This document shows, one piece after another, positions 1 to 11,577 of a DNA stretch of 11,599 nucleotides. Under the pieces are notes generated by a model. It was not told the DNA's origin. It made no database searches and worked only from the letters and a program-made list of their open reading frames with translations. Positions within the stretch are counted from its first letter, which is position 1. Each line of letters begins with the position of its first letter. This DNA comes from Lentzea aerocolonigenes. GTDB taxonomy: Bacteria > Actinomycetota > Actinomycetes > Mycobacteriales > Pseudonocardiaceae. The translations under genes and the position numbers were made by a program. The stretch covers positions 1 through 11,599 of the forward strand of contig NZ_JYJG01000043.1 of the NCBI RefSeq assembly GCF_000955955.1, in the 5' to 3' direction.

Positions 1-1086
1 CTAGTGTCCTGAGTCATTAATTCGTTGGCAGTAGGCGGCGAGCGACTCGAGGATCTGGTCGGCGGTGCGGGTCCAGACGTATGGCTTGGGGTTGGTGTTC
101 CACTGCTCGATCCAGCCGCGGATGTCTTTCTCCAGTGCCGTGACCGAGCGGTGGACGCCTCGCCGCAGCAGTTTCATGGTGATCTCGGCGAAGAAGCGCT
201 CGACGAGGTTGAGCCAGCTGGAGCTGGTCGGGGTGAAGTGCAGATGGAACCGCGGATGCTTGAGCAGCCACGTTTTCACCGCTGGTGTCTTGTGGGTGGC
301 GAGGTTGTCGAGGATGACATGGACGTCCAGTTCGGCGGGCACGTTCTTGTCGATGGTGCGCAGGAACGCCAGGAACTCTTGGTGCCGGTGTCGGCGTTTC
401 ACCGCGCTGATGACCTGGCCGGTCGCGATCTCCAGAGCGGCGAACAGGCTAGTGGTGCCGTGCCGGATGTAGTCGAAGCTCTGTCGCTCGGGCACGCCAG
501 GCAGCATCGGCAGTACTGGTGCCGAGCGGTCGAGGGCCTGGATTCCGGTCTTCTCGTCCACGCACAGCACGACCGCCTTCGCGGGCGGGTCGAGATACAG
601 ACCGACGACGTCGCGGACCTTGTCTACGAAGAAGGGGTCTTTGCTGATCTTGAACGTGTCGACCCGGTGGGGCTTGAGGCCGAAGGCTCGCCAGATTCGT
701 GACACCGCGGACTGCGTCATCCCGGTTTGCTGGGCCAGCGAGCGGGTCGACCAGTGGGTGGCGTTCGTCGGGGTGGTTTCCAGTGTCGTCACCACGACCC
801 GCTCGACCTGATCGTCGCTGATCTGCCGCGGGCGGCCCGGTCGCGGTTCGTCGGACAGGCCGTCCAGCCTGTCGCTGACGAACCGCGACCGCCACGTCCG
901 CACCGTGTTGCGGCTCAACCGCAACCGTTGCGCCACTTCGGTATTCGAGCCGCCCTCCGCGCAGGCGAGCACGATCCCGGCTCGCATCGCCAACCCCTGC
1001 GCTGTCGTCCGGCGCCGCGACCAGCCCTCCAAGATCCGACGTTCCTCGTCGGACAGGACCAACGGCACCAACTTCGAACTCGGCAT
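1..1086 (-). CDS. IS630 family transposase
   Basis: A 361-residue DDE transposase that would catalyse cut-and-paste movement of the surrounding element. The N-terminal third (about 15-140) holds helix-turn-helix segments for binding the terminal repeats, including the stretch around S-R-N-T-V-R-T-W (58-65). The C-terminal DDE_3 domain has the three metal-binding acidic residues in context: D177 in VVLCVDEKTG, D260 in HVILDNLATH and E296 in WLNLVERFF. The D260-E296 spacing fits IS630 transposases. Length is normal and there is no frameshift. The ATG at 1086 is preceded by TAGGCT and six bases, so the mRNA may be leaderless. The stop codon lies across the IS boundary: TA comes from the target duplication and the final G from host DNA. 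It is co-directional with, and 41 bp downstream of, the tetR gene, so read-through expression is possible. Confidence 0.95.
   Translation of the reverse strand: MPSSKLVPLVLSDEERRILEGWSRRRTTAQGLAMRAGIVLACAEGGSNTEVAQRLRLSRNTVRTWRSRFVSDRLDGLSDEPRPGRPRQISDDQVERVVVTTLETTPTNATHWSTRSLAQQTGMTQSAVSRIWRAFGLKPHRVDTFKISKDPFFVDKVRDVVGLYLDPPAKAVVLCVDEKTGIQALDRSAPVLPMLPGVPERQSFDYIRHGTTSLFAALEIATGQVISAVKRRHRHQEFLAFLRTIDKNVPAELDVHVILDNLATHKTPAVKTWLLKHPRFHLHFTPTSSSWLNLVERFFAEITMKLLRRGVHRSVTALEKDIRGWIEQWNTNPKPYVWTRTADQILESLAAYCQRINDSGH
4..23 (+). repeat. IS630 left terminal inverted repeat
   Basis: Pairs with 1109-1128: 12 identical outer bases, then TTA and TTC blocks separated by single A/G differences. The repeat also encodes the last residues of the transposase (minus strand, ending N-D-S-G-H). 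The transposase stop TAG is completed by the flanking TA and the host C at position 1. Confidence 0.9.
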
Positions 1087-1092
1087 CGACCA

Positions 1093-1098
1093 AGCCTA
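1093..1098 (-). promoter_or_regulatory. Candidate leaderless -10 box of the transposase
   Basis: On the minus strand TAGGCT fits the actinobacterial TANNNT -10 motif and is followed by six bases and the ATG. This is the spacing of a leaderless transcript. No Shine-Dalgarno sequence is visible before the start. No good -35 was identified; 17 bases upstream falls inside the right terminal repeat. Confidence 0.4.
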
Positions 1099-1108
1099 CG
1101 GTGCACAA

Positions 1109-1128
1109 GAACTAACGACTCAGGACAC
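1109..1128 (-). repeat. IS630 right terminal inverted repeat
   Basis: Reverse complement matches 4-23 with two mismatches over 20 bp. It lies just upstream of the transposase start and may supply the -35 side of the transposase promoter. Its terminal G, on the minus strand, restores the TAG stop codon of the neighbouring tetR gene. Confidence 0.9.
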
Positions 1129-1691
1129 TAGGGCCAGGCGCGCAGCAGGGAGTCGAGCGCGTCGAGGGCGCGGGTCCACGACGCCTCGACCCCGCGCGGA
1201 TGACTGTGGAACGCCCCCGCGCGCTCCAACGACACGTAGCCGTGGAACGTGCTGTGCAGCAACCTCACGGCGTCGGTCTGGTCCGGCTCCCACAGGTCGT
1301 AGCCGCGCAGGATCGCCCGCGTCATCTCGGCGTGCTTGCTCGCCGCGCTCAGTGCGGCCGTGTCCGGGTCGAGCACCATCTGCGCCGCCGCGTACCGGCC
1401 GGGGTGCTCGTGCGCGTACGACCGGTACGCCTGGGCGAACGCCACCAGCGCGTCCTTGCCCGAACGGCCGGCCAGCGCGTCCGACACCCGGTCCGCCATC
1501 TCGGCCAGCGCCAGCACCGCGAGGCGCACGCGCAGGTCGTGGGCGTTGCGGATGTGCGAGTAGAGCGACGCGTCCTTCACGCCGAAGTGCCGGGCGAGCG
1601 CGGACACCGTCACGTTCTCGAAGCCGACCTCGTCCGCCAGCTCCGCGGCCGCCTGCGTGAGGCGTTCGGCGGTGAGCCCCGCGCGTGCCAT
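1128..1691 (-). CDS. TetR/AcrR family transcriptional regulator (WHG-type C-terminal domain)
   Basis: A 187-residue one-component repressor. Residues 8-55 form the TetR DNA-binding domain: a first helix (LTAERLTQAAAELADEVG), then the helix-turn-helix at about 27-47 (VTVSALARHFGVKDASLYSH). The rest is an all-helical ligand and dimer domain. The phrase STFHGYVSLE (147-156) matches the signature of the TetR C-terminal WHG domain (with F in place of W). The ligand is not predictable. ATG at 1691 is preceded on its strand by GGAAGGG at good distance. The gene is divergent from the FBP gene across a 67-bp spacer rich in CTAG repeats, the likely operator, so self-regulation and control of FBP are expected (inference). 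The IS630 element inserted within its TAG stop, which is regenerated, so the protein is unchanged. Confidence 0.9.
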   Translation of the reverse strand: MARAGLTAERLTQAAAELADEVGFENVTVSALARHFGVKDASLYSHIRNAHDLRVRLAVLALAEMADRVSDALAGRSGKDALVAFAQAYRSYAHEHPGRYAAAQMVLDPDTAALSAASKHAEMTRAILRGYDLWEPDQTDAVRLLHSTFHGYVSLERAGAFHSHPRGVEASWTRALDALDSLLRAWP

Positions 1692-4137: not shown

Positions 4138-5184
4138 ATGGTCTGCTTCATCCTGCCCGCGCATCTGCTCATCGAGCTCGCGGAAGCCGGCAACGTCGAC
4201 ATCCGCGACACCATCCCGACCCTGCTCGCCTCTGCGGCCCTGCGCACCCAGCGCGACACGCTCACCGAGGCCGTCCAGTTCCTCGACCTGAACGCGGGCC
4301 AGCTGCGCGGCCCCGCCAGCGAGTTCAAGGCCGTGCACGACGTCCAGGGCGGCGACGAGCGCAACCTGCCCGGCGTCATGCGCCGCAAGGAAGGCGACGG
4401 CGCCAACAGCGACCCGGCCGTCAACGACGCGTTCGACAACGCCGACCGCACCTACGACTTCTACCGCGACGTCCTGGGCCGGCACAGCGTCGACGGCAAC
4501 GGCCTCAGGCTGGTCAGTTCCGTCCACTTCGGACGCGGCTTCGACAACGCGTTCTGGGACGGCACGCAGATGGTCTACGGCGACGGCAGCGGCAAGGTCT
4601 TCCAGCCCGGCGCGCTCGCCCGCGACGTCTCCGTGGTGGGCCACGAGATCACGCACGGTGTCGTCCAGTACACGGCGGGCCTGCGCTACCGCCAGCAGTC
4701 CGGCGCCCTGAACGAGTCCTGGGCCGACGTCTTCGGCTCGCTGGTCAAGCAGCACGCGCTCGGGCAGTCAGCCGACCAGGCCGACTGGCTGATCGGCGCG
4801 GGCATCCTCGGCACGCAGCTGCAGGGCGTCGCGCTGCGGTCGATGAAGGACCCAGGCAAGGCCCACCAGCTCGACCGCCAGCCGGCCCACATGCGTTCGT
4901 ACGTCGACCTGCCCGACGACGGCAACCCGCGCAACGACAACGGCGGCGTGCACATCAACTCCGGCATCCCCAACAAGGCCTTCCACCTCACCGCGACCCG
5001 TCTCGGCGGCAACGCGTGGGAGCGCGCGGGCAAGGTCTGGTACGACGCGCTCGCCACGAAGCTCCGGGTGAACTCCGACTTCGCCGAGGCGGCGGCGGCG
5101 ACCGTCGCGTCGGCGCAGGCCCTGTTCGGTGCCGATGTCGCCAACACCGTCCGGTCCGCGTGGAACGACGTCGGCGTCAGCTAG
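4138..5184 (+). CDS. M4 family (thermolysin/protealysin-like) zinc metallopeptidase
   Basis: A 348-residue peptidase with the complete M4 active site: H169-E-I-T-H173 (zinc ligands and catalytic E170), third ligand E193 in the GALNESWADVFG motif, Y178, and the transition-state His H272 in NGGVHINSGIPNKAF. It is much shorter than secreted thermolysins because there is no signal peptide and no long propeptide. Instead a short N-terminal stretch (about 1-50, FILPAHLLIELAEAGN) resembles the short propeptide of protealysin-type enzymes, which act inside the cell or leave by non-classical routes. C3 could act as a zinc-blocking residue (inference). ATG 4138 has an excellent ribosome site, GGAGGGGG at 4122. 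It is monocistronic between an upstream terminator and a convergent gene. Emfourin-type inhibitor genes accompany many protealysin-like genes, but none is adjacent here. Confidence 0.93.
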   Translation: MVCFILPAHLLIELAEAGNVDIRDTIPTLLASAALRTQRDTLTEAVQFLDLNAGQLRGPASEFKAVHDVQGGDERNLPGVMRRKEGDGANSDPAVNDAFDNADRTYDFYRDVLGRHSVDGNGLRLVSSVHFGRGFDNAFWDGTQMVYGDGSGKVFQPGALARDVSVVGHEITHGVVQYTAGLRYRQQSGALNESWADVFGSLVKQHALGQSADQADWLIGAGILGTQLQGVALRSMKDPGKAHQLDRQPAHMRSYVDLPDDGNPRNDNGGVHINSGIPNKAFHLTATRLGGNAWERAGKVWYDALATKLRVNSDFAEAAAATVASAQALFGADVANTVRSAWNDVGVS

Positions 5185-5367: not shown

Positions 5368-8300
5368 TCACGGACACGTCTCCCGGTACGGCAGACCGGG
5401 CACGAGCTGGGGCCACTCCTGTTCGGCCAGACCCTCTCCCAGGATCTCGCAGGCGATCTCGAAAGGCTTGTCCAGCATGGAGGTCAGCGGCCTCAGGTCC
5501 CACAGCCGAACGCCGTCCGACACGTCACCGGTGGCGAGCGTCGTGCCGTCCGGGCTGAACGCCAGCGGTCCGCGGGCGCGAAACCTCAGCGGCGGCCCGA
5601 GCTGACGTGGTGTGAACGGGTCGGTCATGTCCCACAGCAGGACGGTGCCGTCGGGGCTGCCCGTCGCGAGCAGTCTGCCGTGCGGGGCGAAAGCGAGCTG
5701 TGCCGCGGCAACCGGCATCGGCTGCCCGACGCGGGACACGCCCTGGGTGTCCCACACGAGTGCGGTACCGCCGGACCCGCCCGCCACCAGCACGCCGCTG
5801 TCGGGAGAGAAGGCCACCGCGGCGGCGCCGGAGACGTTGCCAACCATCGGGTCGGGGACGCTTCCCGGTGCGAGGAAGTCCCATCCTCGAACAGAACCGT
5901 CCGTGCTGACTGTGGCGATCTTGCGGCTGTCCGGTGAGATGGCGGCCGCCGCGACCTTCGTGTCGTGCCCTCGGAGGAACCTGTCGCGCCGGGCAGGGTC
6001 GCGCGAGGACCACAGCGTCGGGACGTTGCCGGTATCGCCCGCGGTGGTCGTCAGGAAGTAGTTCCCGTCCGGAGAGAACACCGTGAGCACGGTCCAGTAC
6101 TCCAGCTGGTGCTTTTTCCGGGGATGTCCTGGGTCCGTGACGTCCTGGAAGGTGTTGCCCGCCGCGAGAACGCGGCCGTCCGGAGCGAACGTGACCGCTG
6201 TCGGCTCGTGCGGCGAGATGCCGGTCAGCGGCTCGCCGAACGGTGTGGCCGGGTCGTGCGGCCGCCACAGGGTGACGCGGTCGTCACCGCCGACGGCGAG
6301 GGTCGTCCCGTCCGGGCTGAACGCGAGGCTGCGCACGTCTGCGTCGAACGGCTCTCCGATCGGGGCCGGGCGGAACTTGCCGGTGAGGTCCCACAGGGTG
6401 TTCTCGACGGCGAGGCTGTGGCCGTCCGGTGAGAACGACACCGAACCGGCGGTGATGGCGGGCGGGGTGTCGGCGACCCGCCTCGGTGCCAGCGGGTCGG
6501 TCACGTCCCACATCGCGGTGCCACCGAGGCCACCGGTGATGGCAAGCGTGCGGCCGTCCGGTGAGAAGTCGAGGGACTTCGTCGACTCGGACCCGGCCAG
6601 CCGCGCGGACACGGCGCGTGGATGATCCGGATCGGACACGTCGACGAGCACGACACCGTCGTCGCCGGACACCGCGGCGAGTCCGCGCACTGGTGAGAAC
6701 GCCACGTCCCGCAGTGGAGCTGTGCCGACCGGCAGCCGACCTGCCGGCCGCGGCTGCTCCGATCGCGTCACGTCCCACAGACTCTCGCCTGCCGCCAGGA
6801 GCTCGCCTCCTGGGGAGAACGCGACAGCGTTGATCTCGCTCGCACCGTCGTGGTGGAGGTACCAGCCGAGCAGATGAGTCCGGGTGGGATCAGAGATGTT
6901 CCACAGTCGTGCGTCGTGCCGGTTGGCGGTCACGAGCGTGGTGCCGTCATTCGTGAACGCCATGTCCGTGATCGGCTGGAACTCCCCGCTCAGCACCGGA
7001 CCGATGCGATGCGGTGTGGTCGCCGTCAGGTCCCAGACGAGAATCTCGCCGCTGCTGTTCGCGGTGGCCAGCGTCCGGCCGTCCGGTGAGATCGCCACTT
7101 GTCGCAGCCCCATCCCGTCGACGGCGAGCCGGTGTTTCAGGCGTGGCGGGCCCGGTGCTGAGGTGCTCCACACGGTCACCGAACCGTCGGTGCCGACACC
7201 CGCGAGCAGCCTCGCGCGGCGGGCATGCACGACCCGAGTCTGGCCTGGCAGGGCACCCCGGTAGCCGCTGTTGGCCAGCGTGTGCCGGACCACGGCGTTC
7301 GCGGAGGCGTTGCCGGGGGCGATCCGTCCCGCGGCGACGCCGAGTGCCAGCGCGGCCCAGGGAGCTACGGAGGTGAAGGTGCCCGCCTGGGTGATCAGCT
7401 GCTGGGCGACGGCGGCGCGCTGGCGTTGCTCGGCTTCCGACTGGCGGTCCTGGGCGATGAGCTGGCGGTTGTAGGCGATGGCCGCGCCGGCCAGCGCGAT
7501 GACCAGCAGGACCGACAGCACGGTCACAGTTCGCCTGCGCCGGTGCCTGTCGTGGCGGACGCTCGCGTGGAGGAAGTCGTCGGCGGTGGCGGACAGGTCG
7601 ACCCGCGTGACGTCCTCGCGGGCCACGTGCAGGTGGGCGCCCTGCCACAGTCGCGAGGGCGGTCGCCCGGCCGCGGTCCACTCGGTCGCGGCCTGTTCGA
7701 GGGCACCGCGGGTGCGCAGGGCCGCCGCGTGTTCGGTGATCGCCTCGGCCAGCGGCGGCCACTCGGTCAGGAAGGCCTCGTGTGCGACGCCGAGGACGAC
7801 CTCGCCCGCGATCGTGTCGGTGGTGACCAGGCGGCGGGTCACGAACTCGGCGAGCTCGGGGAACGAGATGCCGGGCACGTGGCGGCGGGTCGGCCGGCCG
7901 CGTTCGTCCACGGTGACGAGCGAGAGCAGTGCGGCGAGCACGTCCGGCGCGGTCCGGCCGGTGGTCGCGGCGAGCAGGGCCGCGTCGGACTGCGCGAGCA
8001 ACGCGCCCCGCACACCGCCCAGCGCGTCGTACCGGGCGGAGGAGAGCCTGCCGCCGCGCCGCACGCCGTCGCTGAGCTCGGCGAGGGTGAACGCGAGCAG
8101 TGGCAGCGCGGTGCCATCACCGGTGTCGTCGATCAGCCGGGACGTGAGGTGCTCGTCGATCGCGATGCCGGCGATCTCGGCGGGCCGTTCGATGATCTCG
8201 CGCAGCGACTCCCGGCGCAGTGGCGTGACGGGGTGGACGCGGCCGCACAGGTCGGCGAGGTGTGGGTCGGACAGCAGCTCGGTCAGGTACTCCGGGCGGA

Positions 8301-9105
8301 TCGTGCACACGAGGTGGGCGTCCGTGTCGCGCAGCCGGCCCGCGAACTCCCTGCGCCGGTGCACGTCGGACAGCGTGAAGACCTCCTCGAGCTGGTCGAT
8401 CACGAGTAGCGGGCGGTGCGACGGGGTCTGGGCGAGCACGTGGTCCAGCGCGCTCACCGGGTCGTGTCCCGGCATCACGACGGGCAGTGGGAACACGCCG
8501 GGGACACCGGTCATCGCGGGGATCAGGCCTGCCCGCACGAGCGAGGACTTGCCGCAGCCGGACGGGCCGACGACGAGCGTGCCGCCGTTGTCCTCCTGGA
8601 CGAGCCCGACGAGTTCGGCGACCTCGCGGTCACGGCCGAAGAAGACGCGGTGGCGGTCGACGTCCAGCGGCACGAGGCCGGGGAACGGGGAGCGGCCGTC
8701 CGGCCAGTGCGGATCTCCTGCCGCGTCGATCTCCCGCAGTGCCCTGGCGATGCGGGCCCTCGCCTTGGCCGGGTCGGCGAGGTCGGTGTGCTGGATCTCG
8801 TCGAGCAGCGGGTGGACGACGGTGCCGGGCCGCAGAGGCAGGATCCGGCTGCCCAGCATGCGCGCCGTGTCGAGCTCCGCCGTGCACCACGCCGAGGCGA
8901 GGTAGTCCGTCGTGATCACGCAGAGCAGCGCGTTGGCCCAGCGCAGGCGTTCGTGCAGGCGGCGCACCCACTCGTCGCCGACCGCGATGCCGGTGCGCGG
9001 ATCGCGGTCGAGGAAGACCTCGTGGCCGTCCGCTTCGAGCCACTCGTGCAGTTTCGCGGCCAGTGCCAGGTCCGGGCTCGCGTAGCTGACGAACACCTTG
9101 GCCAC
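5368..9105 (-). CDS. TIR - STAND NTPase - transmembrane - WD40 repeat protein (putative immune/conflict sensor)
   Basis: A 1245-residue multidomain protein. TIR domain, 1-125: KVFVSYASPDLALA, FLDRDPRTGIAVGDEW and SAWCTAELDTA, where E77 is at the place of the catalytic Glu of NAD-cleaving TIRs. STAND-type NTPase, about 140-480: FFGRDREVAELV, Walker A G180-PSGCGKSS, Walker B LLVIDQLEEVF (D237, E240/E241), arginine motif CTIRPEYL (R270). A basic cluster (RHDRHRRRR) precedes one hydrophobic helix (526-546). A helical Gln-rich stretch follows, then 14 WD40-like units (about 625-1210), enough for two seven-bladed propellers, and a conserved-looking tail. Families of this layout are thought to sense a trigger through the repeats, oligomerise via the NTPase and activate the effector, here TIR. 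A role in phage defence or cell suicide is inference. The start is GTG 9105 with GGGGG upstream. The frame is intact. Confidence 0.93.
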   Translation of the reverse strand: MAKVFVSYASPDLALAAKLHEWLEADGHEVFLDRDPRTGIAVGDEWVRRLHERLRWANALLCVITTDYLASAWCTAELDTARMLGSRILPLRPGTVVHPLLDEIQHTDLADPAKARARIARALREIDAAGDPHWPDGRSPFPGLVPLDVDRHRVFFGRDREVAELVGLVQEDNGGTLVVGPSGCGKSSLVRAGLIPAMTGVPGVFPLPVVMPGHDPVSALDHVLAQTPSHRPLLVIDQLEEVFTLSDVHRRREFAGRLRDTDAHLVCTIRPEYLTELLSDPHLADLCGRVHPVTPLRRESLREIIERPAEIAGIAIDEHLTSRLIDDTGDGTALPLLAFTLAELSDGVRRGGRLSSARYDALGGVRGALLAQSDAALLAATTGRTAPDVLAALLSLVTVDERGRPTRRHVPGISFPELAEFVTRRLVTTDTIAGEVVLGVAHEAFLTEWPPLAEAITEHAAALRTRGALEQAATEWTAAGRPPSRLWQGAHLHVAREDVTRVDLSATADDFLHASVRHDRHRRRRTVTVLSVLLVIALAGAAIAYNRQLIAQDRQSEAEQRQRAAVAQQLITQAGTFTSVAPWAALALGVAAGRIAPGNASANAVVRHTLANSGYRGALPGQTRVVHARRARLLAGVGTDGSVTVWSTSAPGPPRLKHRLAVDGMGLRQVAISPDGRTLATANSSGEILVWDLTATTPHRIGPVLSGEFQPITDMAFTNDGTTLVTANRHDARLWNISDPTRTHLLGWYLHHDGASEINAVAFSPGGELLAAGESLWDVTRSEQPRPAGRLPVGTAPLRDVAFSPVRGLAAVSGDDGVVLVDVSDPDHPRAVSARLAGSESTKSLDFSPDGRTLAITGGLGGTAMWDVTDPLAPRRVADTPPAITAGSVSFSPDGHSLAVENTLWDLTGKFRPAPIGEPFDADVRSLAFSPDGTTLAVGGDDRVTLWRPHDPATPFGEPLTGISPHEPTAVTFAPDGRVLAAGNTFQDVTDPGHPRKKHQLEYWTVLTVFSPDGNYFLTTTAGDTGNVPTLWSSRDPARRDRFLRGHDTKVAAAAISPDSRKIATVSTDGSVRGWDFLAPGSVPDPMVGNVSGAAAVAFSPDSGVLVAGGSGGTALVWDTQGVSRVGQPMPVAAAQLAFAPHGRLLATGSPDGTVLLWDMTDPFTPRQLGPPLRFRARGPLAFSPDGTTLATGDVSDGVRLWDLRPLTSMLDKPFEIACEILGEGLAEQEWPQLVPGLPYRETCP

Positions 9106-9129
9106 TCAGGTACCCCCGTTCGGGCACGA

Positions 9130-10025: not shown

Positions 10026-10388
10026 GTGACCGGCGCCTCGCGAACCCGTGCGTACCTCGCGCGCGTGTTCGCCGTGCTCGCGCTGGTGGCCGGGGTCGCG
10101 ATGATGCAGGGCACTCCGTGTGAGACGGAGTTCGCCTGGACCGCGCAGTGTCCGACGTCGAGCACCCACGTGGTGGCCCACTCCGACCTGGCCGATGACG
10201 GCGGGTTGCTGGAGGGCATTCTCGTCGCGGGCGCGTGTCTCGTGGTGGCGCTGGCGGTGTTGATCGGGTTCGCCGTGCTGCGGCGGGCCCGGTCCGTGCC
10301 CGCGCACCTCATCCCCGCACAGGTTTGGTCTCGGCCTTCACGTCGGCTGGAAGTACGGCTGGCGCAGCTCTGCGTGCTGCGCACATAG
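10026..10388 (+). CDS. Small two-TM membrane protein, first gene of the DsbA-VKOR operon
   Basis: A 120-residue protein of unknown function. A basic N-terminus (SRTRAYLARV) leads into a hydrophobic helix at about 12-28. A loop of about 34 residues follows, then a second helix at about 63-84 and a basic tail (RRARS), so both ends should be cytoplasmic and the loop outside. The loop has two cysteines, C32 and C42; C71 is in the second helix and C116 near the C-terminus. The start is GTG 10026, judged leaderless. It is followed after 56 bp by a DsbA-like gene in the same direction. Its position suggests a role in, or dependence on, extracytoplasmic disulfide formation, but no family is recognised. 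Confidence 0.75.
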   Translation: MTGASRTRAYLARVFAVLALVAGVAMMQGTPCETEFAWTAQCPTSSTHVVAHSDLADDGGLLEGILVAGACLVVALAVLIGFAVLRRARSVPAHLIPAQVWSRPSRRLEVRLAQLCVLRT

Positions 10389-10444
10389 ACCGCTCGTCGG
10401 TCGCCAAGCCCACTTCCCAGCCTTCGTCGGAGGTTCTACGAGTC

Positions 10445-11044
10445 ATGTCCAAAAACGCTCGCCTGTCCCTGGTCATCGTCGCCGTCGTCGCGGTGGTGGT
10501 CGCCGGTTTCCTGCTGTTCTCCCGCAACGACACGACCGCCGCACCGCAGTCCGTTGACGGCAAGGTGACCGTCGTCGAGTACCTCGACATGGAGTGCCCG
10601 TCCTGCCGTGCCGCGTATCCCGGCGTGGAGAAGCTCAAGAGCGAGTACGGCGACCGCGTCACGTTCGCGGTCAAGCACTTCCCGCTTCCCATGCACCGCA
10701 ACGCCGAACTGGCCGCGATTGCGGTCGAGGCCGCCGACGCGCAGGGCAAGAAGAACGAGATGTTCAAGGCGCTGTTCGAGTCGCAGCCGGAGTGGGGCGG
10801 GCAGCAGACGTCGCAGCGCGCGAAGTTCCTGGACGTGGCTCAGCAGCTCGGGCTCGACCCGGCCGCGTTCGAGAAGGCGCTCGACGACTCGGCGCTGCGC
10901 GACAAGGTGCTGGCCTCGCGCACTGAGGGGTCGAAGCTCGGGGTGCAGGGGACGCCGACGTTCTTCATCAACGGCACCAAGTTCAGCGGCGCGCCCAGCT
11001 ACGACAACCTGAAGACGGCGATCGACCGGGAGCTCGCGAAGTGA
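10445..11044 (+). CDS. DsbA-like thiol:disulfide oxidoreductase, membrane-anchored
   Basis: A 199-residue protein: short basic N-terminus (MSKNAR), one uncleaved-looking hydrophobic anchor (about 8-25) and an extracytoplasmic thioredoxin-fold domain with an inserted helical part, the DsbA_4/thioredoxin_4 type. The redox centre is C51-P-S-C54 in EYLDMECPSCRAAYPG. The facing cis-proline loop is VQGTPTFFING (P171). It would insert disulfides into exported proteins and be re-oxidised by VKOR. ATG 10445 follows GGAGG at 10429-10433, a somewhat long spacing of 11 bases. Its TGA overlaps the VKOR GTG start (GTGA), so the two are translationally coupled. Disulfide-bond oxidase is the best call; an isomerase role is less likely without a dimerisation domain. 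Confidence 0.93.
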   Translation: MSKNARLSLVIVAVVAVVVAGFLLFSRNDTTAAPQSVDGKVTVVEYLDMECPSCRAAYPGVEKLKSEYGDRVTFAVKHFPLPMHRNAELAAIAVEAADAQGKKNEMFKALFESQPEWGGQQTSQRAKFLDVAQQLGLDPAAFEKALDDSALRDKVLASRTEGSKLGVQGTPTFFINGTKFSGAPSYDNLKTAIDRELAK

Positions 11045-11577
11045 ACCGGATCGTCGCGTGGGTGCTCGCGGCCGGCGGGTTCGTCGGCCTGGTCGCCTCG
11101 TTCGTGCTGACGGTCGAGAAGATCGCGCTGCTCAAGGACCCGTTCTACGTGCCGACGTGCAGCATCAACCCGGTGCTGAGCTGCGGCTCGGTCATGAAGA
11201 CCGCACAGGCCGAGGTGCTCGGGTTCCCGAACCCGCTGCTCGGCATCGCCGGGTTCGCGGTCGTGACGACGGTGGGCGTGCTGCTGCTGGCCGGCGTGGA
11301 GTTGCCGCGGTGGGTGTGGATCGGGCTGCAGGCCGGTGTCACCGCGGGCGTGCTGTTCGTGCACTGGCTGATCTTCCAGTCGCTGTACGAGATCGGCGCG
11401 CTGTGCCCGTACTGCATGGTCGTGTGGGCGGTGACGATCCCGATCTTCTGGTACACGACGCTGCGCAACGTCCGGCCGGGCTTCCAGTTCCACAGCGTGG
11501 TGCTGATCCTGTGGTACCTGGTGATCGCGGGCGGGGTGCTGCAGGCGTTCTGGTTCTACTGGTCGACGCTCTTCTAG
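11041..11577 (+). CDS. VKOR family quinone-linked disulfide oxidase
   Basis: A 178-residue membrane protein of the vitamin K epoxide reductase family, the actinobacterial counterpart of DsbB. It has hydrophobic helices at about 5-25, 66-84, 93-111, 121-140 and 153-172. The active-site pair is C122-P-Y-C125 at the start of the fourth helix, next to the quinone. The shuttle cysteines C40 and C48 lie in the first extracytoplasmic loop (PTCSINPVLSCGSVM). Electrons go from the partner DsbA to C40/C48, then C122/C125, then quinone. There is no fused thioredoxin domain; the upstream DsbA serves that role. GTG 11041 overlaps the DsbA stop and has GGGAG eight bases upstream. Length is typical for unfused bacterial VKORs. 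Confidence 0.93.
   Translation: MNRIVAWVLAAGGFVGLVASFVLTVEKIALLKDPFYVPTCSINPVLSCGSVMKTAQAEVLGFPNPLLGIAGFAVVTTVGVLLLAGVELPRWVWIGLQAGVTAGVLFVHWLIFQSLYEIGALCPYCMVVWAVTIPIFWYTTLRNVRPGFQFHSVVLILWYLVIAGGVLQAFWFYWSTLF

What the first reader, a model, noticed from the sequence alone, without database searches (positions are those of the whole stretch)
5368..9105. Candidate TIR-STAND immune receptor with membrane anchor and WD40 sensor
A TIR with the putative catalytic Glu (E77), an intact Walker A/B NTPase and a repeat sensor in one chain matches the effector-switch-sensor plan of bacterial conflict proteins. The strongly basic flank before the single hydrophobic helix (526-546) predicts cytoplasmic TIR/NTPase and an extracytoplasmic sensor. 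That would be unusual for a phage sensor and would suggest detection of an envelope event or secreted signal.
Basis: partly seen in the sequence, partly recalled or inferred. Interest (0 to 1): 0.72.

Follow-up and report, generated by a model that had tools for sequence, protein, structure and literature searches.

The report
Membrane-spanning bacterial TIR-NLR-like receptor
A soil bacterium encodes a protein laid out like the immune and cell-death receptors of plants and animals, but threaded through the cell membrane so that its sensing part probably faces outside the cell, unlike its intracellular counterparts.

Summary
Observation confirmed. The 1245-residue gene (5368-9105, minus) encodes a TIR (E77), an nSTAND1 NTPase, one transmembrane helix (526-546), about 14 WD40 blades and a C-terminal Cys pair. 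In 120 of 120 listed relatives (query included) helix and charge asymmetry are kept. Cysteine is 0.72% before the helix and 0.018% after it once the conserved C-terminal Cys pair is set aside; 113 of 120 have an even count after it. In 114 related proteins with no helix before their WD40, that part has 0.84% Cys and near-random parity (63 of 114). The same helix-WD40-Cys-tail module also caps Ser/Thr kinases. So the propellers are very probably extracytoplasmic. Models match SARM1/SPARTA TIRs, NLR/Apaf-1/ORC NTPases and PkwA propellers. The layout itself is common in Actinomycetota, and the chassis usually carries transcription-factor, kinase or protease outputs: none of the 12 other strong nSTAND1 genes of this genome shows a TIR. 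Best reading: an outward-sensing TIR-NLR-like receptor that destroys NAD when triggered. Ligand, NADase activity and immune role are untested. New variant of a known kind.

The parts
5368..9105 (-). whole gene, 1245 codons plus stop, GTG start; TIR-nSTAND1-TM-WD40-Cys tail
9113..9117 (-). GGGGG, possible ribosome-binding site 7 nt before the GTG start
   Evidence: sequence; inference
8770..9096 (-). TIR domain, residues 4-112 (TIR_2)
   Evidence: 74.2 bits; fold matches to SPARTA TIR-APAZ and SARM1 TIR
8875..8877 (-). E77, putative catalytic glutamate
   Evidence: E in 119 of 120 and in 19 of 19 other TIR-nSTAND1 of the locus set; aligned with the Glu of solved NADase TIRs
7657..8688 (-). nSTAND1 NTPase with winged-helix part, residues 140-483
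8542..8568 (-). Walker A, residues 180-188, K186
   Evidence: K186 in 120 of 120
8392..8409 (-). Walker B, residues 233-238, D237
   Evidence: D237 in 120 of 120
7531..7575 (-). basic flank before the helix, residues 511-525
7468..7530 (-). transmembrane helix, residues 526-546; part of one predicted helix 506-547
7270..7467 (-). helical stalk, residues 547-612
   Evidence: secondary structure of the model
5488..7269 (-). WD40 region, residues 613-1206, about 14 blades, read as two seven-bladed propellers
   Evidence: (13 units by HMM)
5374..5451 (-). C-terminal Cys tail, C1219 to C1244 with W1231 and Y1240; predicted disulphide
   Evidence: C1219 in 118, W1231 in 118, Y1240 in 113, C1244 in 117 of 120; disulphide is inference

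Best explanation
A single-pass membrane receptor with N-terminus inside and C-terminus outside. Two WD40 propellers closed by a disulphide-bonded tail stand outside the membrane and bind an unknown ligand or envelope change. The signal passes through the helix that continues the STAND arm (506-547) to the cytoplasmic nSTAND1 switch, which exchanges nucleotide and oligomerises; clustering of the TIR domains switches on NAD cleavage at E77 and stops or kills the cell. Shown by sequence or model: domain order, intact catalytic and Walker residues, one helix with inside-positive flanks, cysteine pattern of an oxidising compartment, folds. Inferred: the disulphide itself, ligand binding, nucleotide-driven oligomerisation, NAD cleavage, and a protective (conflict) role.
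Confidence: 0.58

Rival explanations
1. A general outward-looking signalling receptor, not an immune one: the TIR makes a non-lethal NAD-derived signal or tunes NAD during envelope stress or development, as the HTH, SARP and kinase versions of the chassis tune expression.
For: Of 30 non-TIR N-termini scanned, 15 carry HTH_31, 6 BTAD (2 of them with a kinase), 3 Trypsin_2, 2 kinase alone, 1 a cyclase hit, 3 nothing. Ser/Thr kinases use the same helix-WD40-tail module. Neighbouring genes seen were mostly metabolic.
Against: Patchy presence in the genus and faster-evolving propellers fit a conflict role better; solved relatives of the TIR include NADases of defence and cell-death systems.
Confidence: 0.28
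2. The WD40 is cytoplasmic; the hydrophobic segment is a re-entrant or peripheral anchor.
For: Helix calls rest on hydropathy, not on a trained predictor; Apaf-1 and NLRs keep all parts in the cytoplasm.
Against: Charge asymmetry 120 of 120, Cys depletion, parity and tail, and a second helix candidate (>=1.8) elsewhere in only 2 of 120.
Confidence: 0.06
3. The TIR is a scaffold without NADase activity and recruits a separate TIR partner or effector.
For: Many TIRs only assemble; the loop around residues 31-50 is modelled poorly (block pLDDT 61-63).
Against: E77 kept in 119 of 120 and 19 of 19; no conserved partner gene across the 11 loci that could be compared.
Confidence: 0.08

Closest known systems
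nSTAND1-WD40 proteins (Pfam PF20703 with WD40; nSTAND1 named in Kaur et al. 2021, PMC8195603, passages seen)
   Same: NTPase family, domain order; annotated in databases as 'nSTAND1 domain-containing NTPase' or 'TIR domain-containing protein'
   Different: in the passages seen I found no statement that the sensor is extracytoplasmic or bears a conserved Cys tail
Plant TIR-NLR RPP1 (7crc, 7dfv) and animal Apaf-1/NLRP3
   Same: RPP1 is the best Foldseek match of the TIR-NTPase model (E 1.2e-07, TM only 0.25-0.26); NTPase and winged-helix fold; Apaf-1 also pairs a STAND with WD40 propellers
   Different: those are cytosolic; here a helix separates switch and sensor
TEP1 and the Swarozyc system (DUF4062 TIR-like NADase; PMC13174449 preprint, passages seen)
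   Same: TEP1: TIR-like NADase, NACHT, WD40 in one chain; NADase and abortive infection reported for the bacterial form
   Different: DUF4062, not TIR_2; no mention of 'membrane' or 'transmembrane' in that text
Ser/Thr kinases with WD40 sensors (PkwA; planctomycete kinases with predicted periplasmic WD40, PMC11032199, passages seen)
   Same: kinase-helix-WD40-Cys tail found here in 9 proteins; PkwA propeller is the closest fold
   Different: kinase output, no STAND switch
Avs4 and other STAND anti-phage proteins
   Same: STAND switch; Avs4-portal structure among the Foldseek matches (E 4.9e-06)
   Different: no PADLOC Avs model listed for this protein; sensor here is WD40

Membership tests
nSTAND1 STAND NTPases | match to the nSTAND1 profile above curated cut-off | tested here: met
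   248 bits, cut-off 27.1, profile 1-378 of 379
nSTAND1 STAND NTPases | Walker A Lys and Walker B Asp | tested here: met
   K186 and D237, each 120 of 120
nSTAND1 STAND NTPases | nucleotide-dependent oligomerisation | not testable with these tools
   needs biochemistry
NADase TIR domains | TIR profile above cut-off and TIR fold | tested here: met
   74.2 bits, cut-off 28; SPARTA and SARM1 matches
NADase TIR domains | Glu at the position used by solved NADase TIRs | tested here: met
   aligned with AbTIR and RPP1 chains (weak E-values 0.02-0.2); that this Glu is catalytic there is recalled
NADase TIR domains | NAD cleavage | not testable with these tools
   needs assay
NLR / Apaf-1-type receptors | effector-STAND-repeat order in one chain | tested here: met
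NLR / Apaf-1-type receptors | whole receptor in the cytosol | tested here: not met
   helix 526-546 with an oxidising-side cysteine pattern after it; so 'works like an NLR', not filed as one
Thoeris (ThsA/ThsB) | full-length match to a Thoeris model | tested here: not met
   only the TIR matches: ThsB 24.3 bits, ThcB4 47.1 bits against a cut-off of 220
Anti-phage STAND (Avs) | match to a known defence model or activation by a phage protein | tested here: inconclusive
   no Avs model among 8 PADLOC matches; activation not testable
Receptor-type WD40 Ser/Thr kinases | kinase domain | tested here: not met
   no kinase among the Pfam families shown (25 of 41 shown); only helix, WD40 and tail are shared

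The most novel reading that the evidence does not exclude
A transmembrane TIR-NLR: the whole TIR-STAND-double-propeller plan is split by the membrane so that an Apaf-1-like sensor works outside the cell and fires a NAD-destroying TIR inside. It is one output of a portable actinobacterial receptor kit (helix, WD40 propellers, disulphide tail) that is plugged onto STAND switches with TIR, transcription-factor, protease or kinase heads and onto kinases directly. Actinobacteria would thus have surface NLR-like receptors that detect phage adsorption, wall damage, rivals or kin before anything enters the cell.
Probability: 0.45. Interest if true: 0.82.

Novelty: new variant of a known kind. Interest (0 to 1): 0.6.

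Why it matters
NLR and STAND receptors are generally described as sensors of the cell interior. If this one reads the outside, bacteria have combined the surface position of Toll-like receptors with the switch of NLRs and a suicidal NADase in a single chain. The cysteine test makes the topology directly testable for many nSTAND1-WD40 proteins at once, and the shared sensor module means that a ligand found for one output (for example a transcription-factor head, easy to assay with a reporter) could be carried over to the TIR version.

Tried and rejected
Second gene partner: neighbours of TIR-nSTAND1 genes were compared for 18 loci; my simple gene caller found the gene in 11, and the only similar neighbour pairs between loci were DsbA (window and the sister species), a P450-type gene in two Lentzea loci (91% identical) and a weak 29% pair of HTH genes. 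Seven loci (L041, L042, L045, L147, L148, L197, L199) gave no call and were left out of that comparison. Defence island: of ten neighbour proteins scanned with PADLOC, one matched strongly, a restriction-modification enzyme near the gene of one other Lentzea; the rest of the neighbours named by Pfam were mostly metabolic. Mobile element: 77 plasmid records match at E <= 1e-30, none over 80% of the protein; 3 phage records match in the NTPase alone. The IS630-like element at the window edge is 4.2 kb away from the gene and was not linked to it. The Ala at position 72 and the W73R changes in 2 of 120 relatives were not followed. Distance between C1219 and C1244 in the model could not be measured because no coordinates are handed out. 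Positive selection in the propellers: dN/dS is raised but below 1, so no claim is made. The 14-genome control rings in 13 genomes at the loose limit, so only strong nSTAND1 hits were used.

Dropped rows: in the mixed set, 125 ORFs matched nSTAND1; 79 complete ones with at least one WD40 unit were counted, the rest being open-ended or without a WD40 unit. Nearby analysis counts 70 rather than 71 helix-bearing ones because its helix search region ends at the first WD40 unit.

Full report
What is there. The gene at 5368-9105 on the minus strand encodes 1245 residues from a GTG start. Pfam places TIR_2 at 4-112, nSTAND1 at 140-483 and WD40 repeats up to about 1210, each above its curated cut-off. 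The window is contig C549 of a 10.2 Mb genome; the nearest named relative of the protein is from Lentzea aerocolonigenes, 69% identical.

Relatives. 1846 proteins match at E <= 1e-10; I worked with the 120 listed, query included. All 120 match a TIR profile built from the set itself (so partly circular). Residue 77 is E in 119 and D in 1, K186 and D237 are invariant, and a hydrophobic 19-mer sits at the same place in 120 of 120. K+R in the 15 residues before the helix average 6.80 (4-9) and after it 2.58 (1-4), more before than after in 120 of 120. The C-terminus carries a conserved C-x24-C tail (spacing of the query) with W1231 and Y1240: C1219 in 118, C1244 in 117; two rows lack the tail (P0067, and P0096, which its source calls partial) and one has Ser for the second Cys.

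Topology test. Secreted parts of bacterial proteins tend to have no free cysteines and even numbers of them (established knowledge, recalled). Before the helix the 120 relatives have 521 Cys in 72027 residues; after it, without the tail motif, 15 in 81643, and 110 of 120 have none. Counting the tail, 113 of 120 have an even number after the helix, 108 exactly two. As a contrast I took a related nSTAND1-WD40 protein with two N-terminal hydrophobic segments and none before the WD40 (L142) and its 120 best relatives. In the 114 of these scored without a helix there, the part after the NTPase has 627 Cys in 74229 residues, an even count in 63 of 114, and two or more Cys in the last 70 residues in 2 of 114. 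The other 6 scored just above my limit (1.81-1.89), also lack the tail Cys and have 28 Cys in 3774 residues. Fisher tests give 1e-177 for density and 1e-12 for parity, uncorrected for relatedness. Against this: in the contrast set the NTPase side is itself Cys-poor (113 in 52610).

Wider sample. From 132 loci of many lineages I counted 79 complete nSTAND1-WD40 ORFs, window included: 71 have the helix and 8 score below the limit. Of the 71, 60 have an even Cys count after the helix and 63 have at least two Cys in the last 70 residues; of the 8, three have two Cys there (L054, L069, L083) and five do not. The exceptions are listed. A profile of the tail alone (A5) hits 20 of 79 genomes of the class. 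I fetched 20 hit places, hand-picked: 19 have a hydrophobic helix upstream (lowest 1.83) and 2 (15 proteins), 3 (1) or 4 (3) Cys after it; the 20th is cut by its contig start. Eleven of the 19 lack a match to my nSTAND1 profile; of 10 scanned, 9 are Ser/Thr kinases and 1 has no Pfam hit. So the tail follows the helix and the outside position, not the NTPase.

A kit with changing heads. Thirty N-termini without TIR on the helix-bearing chassis were scanned: 15 HTH_31, 6 BTAD (two also kinase), 3 Trypsin_2, 2 kinase alone, 1 cyclase, 3 none. In the own genome the 12 other strong nSTAND1 ORFs all have the helix (one cut by a contig end) and none shows a TIR; 10 were scanned: 7 HTH_31, 2 BTAD, 1 none. 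Three Lentzea species (kentuckyensis, waywayandensis, alba) have TIR-nSTAND1-helix-Cys tail without any WD40 unit found (L047, L048, L052): the tail is a separable module.

Locus. In the 24 genomes of the genus searched, 17 have some match at E <= 1e-50 but a near-full-length one, 70% identical, only in one other, G156. In both genomes the gene lies between an M4 peptidase gene and a DsbA-VKOR pair. Four other stretches that hold both flanks (L243, L245, L246, L247) have 6.7-8.8 kb of other genes there. Two Lentzea genomes carry NACHT-like genes beside the M4 gene at 21-23 bits, below the cut-off of 26.7. The neighbouring reductase gene occurs in 2 of 24 genomes, the M4 gene in 10 of 24. So the gene is an accessory insert in a variable interval. 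Between the two orthologues dN/dS is 0.21 for the TIR and 0.57-0.58 for the propellers.

Mechanism. Most likely the propellers, outside, bind a ligand; the helix passes the change to the STAND; oligomerised TIRs cleave NAD. The preprint on TEP1 and Swarozyc (PMC13174449, passages seen) reports NADase activity for a TIR-like head on a NACHT-WD40 chain and abortive infection for the bacterial form, the closest functional precedent found. The rival that this is ordinary signal transduction is serious because most heads of the chassis are regulators.

What is known. Searches of the held open-access library (one search failed) found two papers with the word nSTAND1. In the passages seen, none describes a membrane-split TIR-nSTAND1-WD40 or the Cys tail. 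Prior hints: periplasmic WD40 predicted on planctomycete kinases (PMC11032199, passages), and a periplasmic prediction for one STAND target in Thiohalocapsa (PMC10907252, section 14 read). PMC7159879, PMC8195603, PMC5587647 and PMC6113231 were seen in passages only; subscription papers are not in the library. Novelty: new variant of a known kind.

Noticed in passing
window 1-1131: IS630-like transposase gene (DDE_3) framed by 30-nt inverted repeats with 83% match (1-30 and 1102-1131); it ends the contig and abuts the stop of the TetR-type gene 1128-1691.
   Followed up: no
window 10355-11577: DsbA-like and VKOR genes overlap by 4 nt, a disulphide-forming pair next to a gene whose product seems to need a disulphide; the pair flanks the variable interval in several Lentzea genomes, so probably coincidence.
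   Followed up: partly
L047, L048, L052: TIR-nSTAND1-helix-Cys tail proteins of 697-727 aa with no WD40 unit found in three Lentzea species: a sensor-less or minimal form.
   Followed up: partly
L243:12011-13801, L249:67-1800: NACHT-like genes (below Pfam cut-off) whose N-termini carry a 'VVQTGHIHGDVHLH'-type stretch, beside the same M4 gene in other Lentzea genomes.
   Followed up: partly
L140, L142 and P0121-P0240: nSTAND1-WD40 family with two N-terminal hydrophobic segments and no output domain recognised; kept at 48-85% identity in many actinomycetes, so perhaps a conserved housekeeping function.
   Followed up: partly
L300 (own genome, C459): 911-aa protein with helix and Cys tail but no WD40 unit found and no Pfam match in its first 520 residues.
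   Followed up: no
window 4138-5184: M4 (thermolysin-type) peptidase of 348 aa, convergent with the receptor gene, present in 10 of 24 genomes of the genus.
   Followed up: partly
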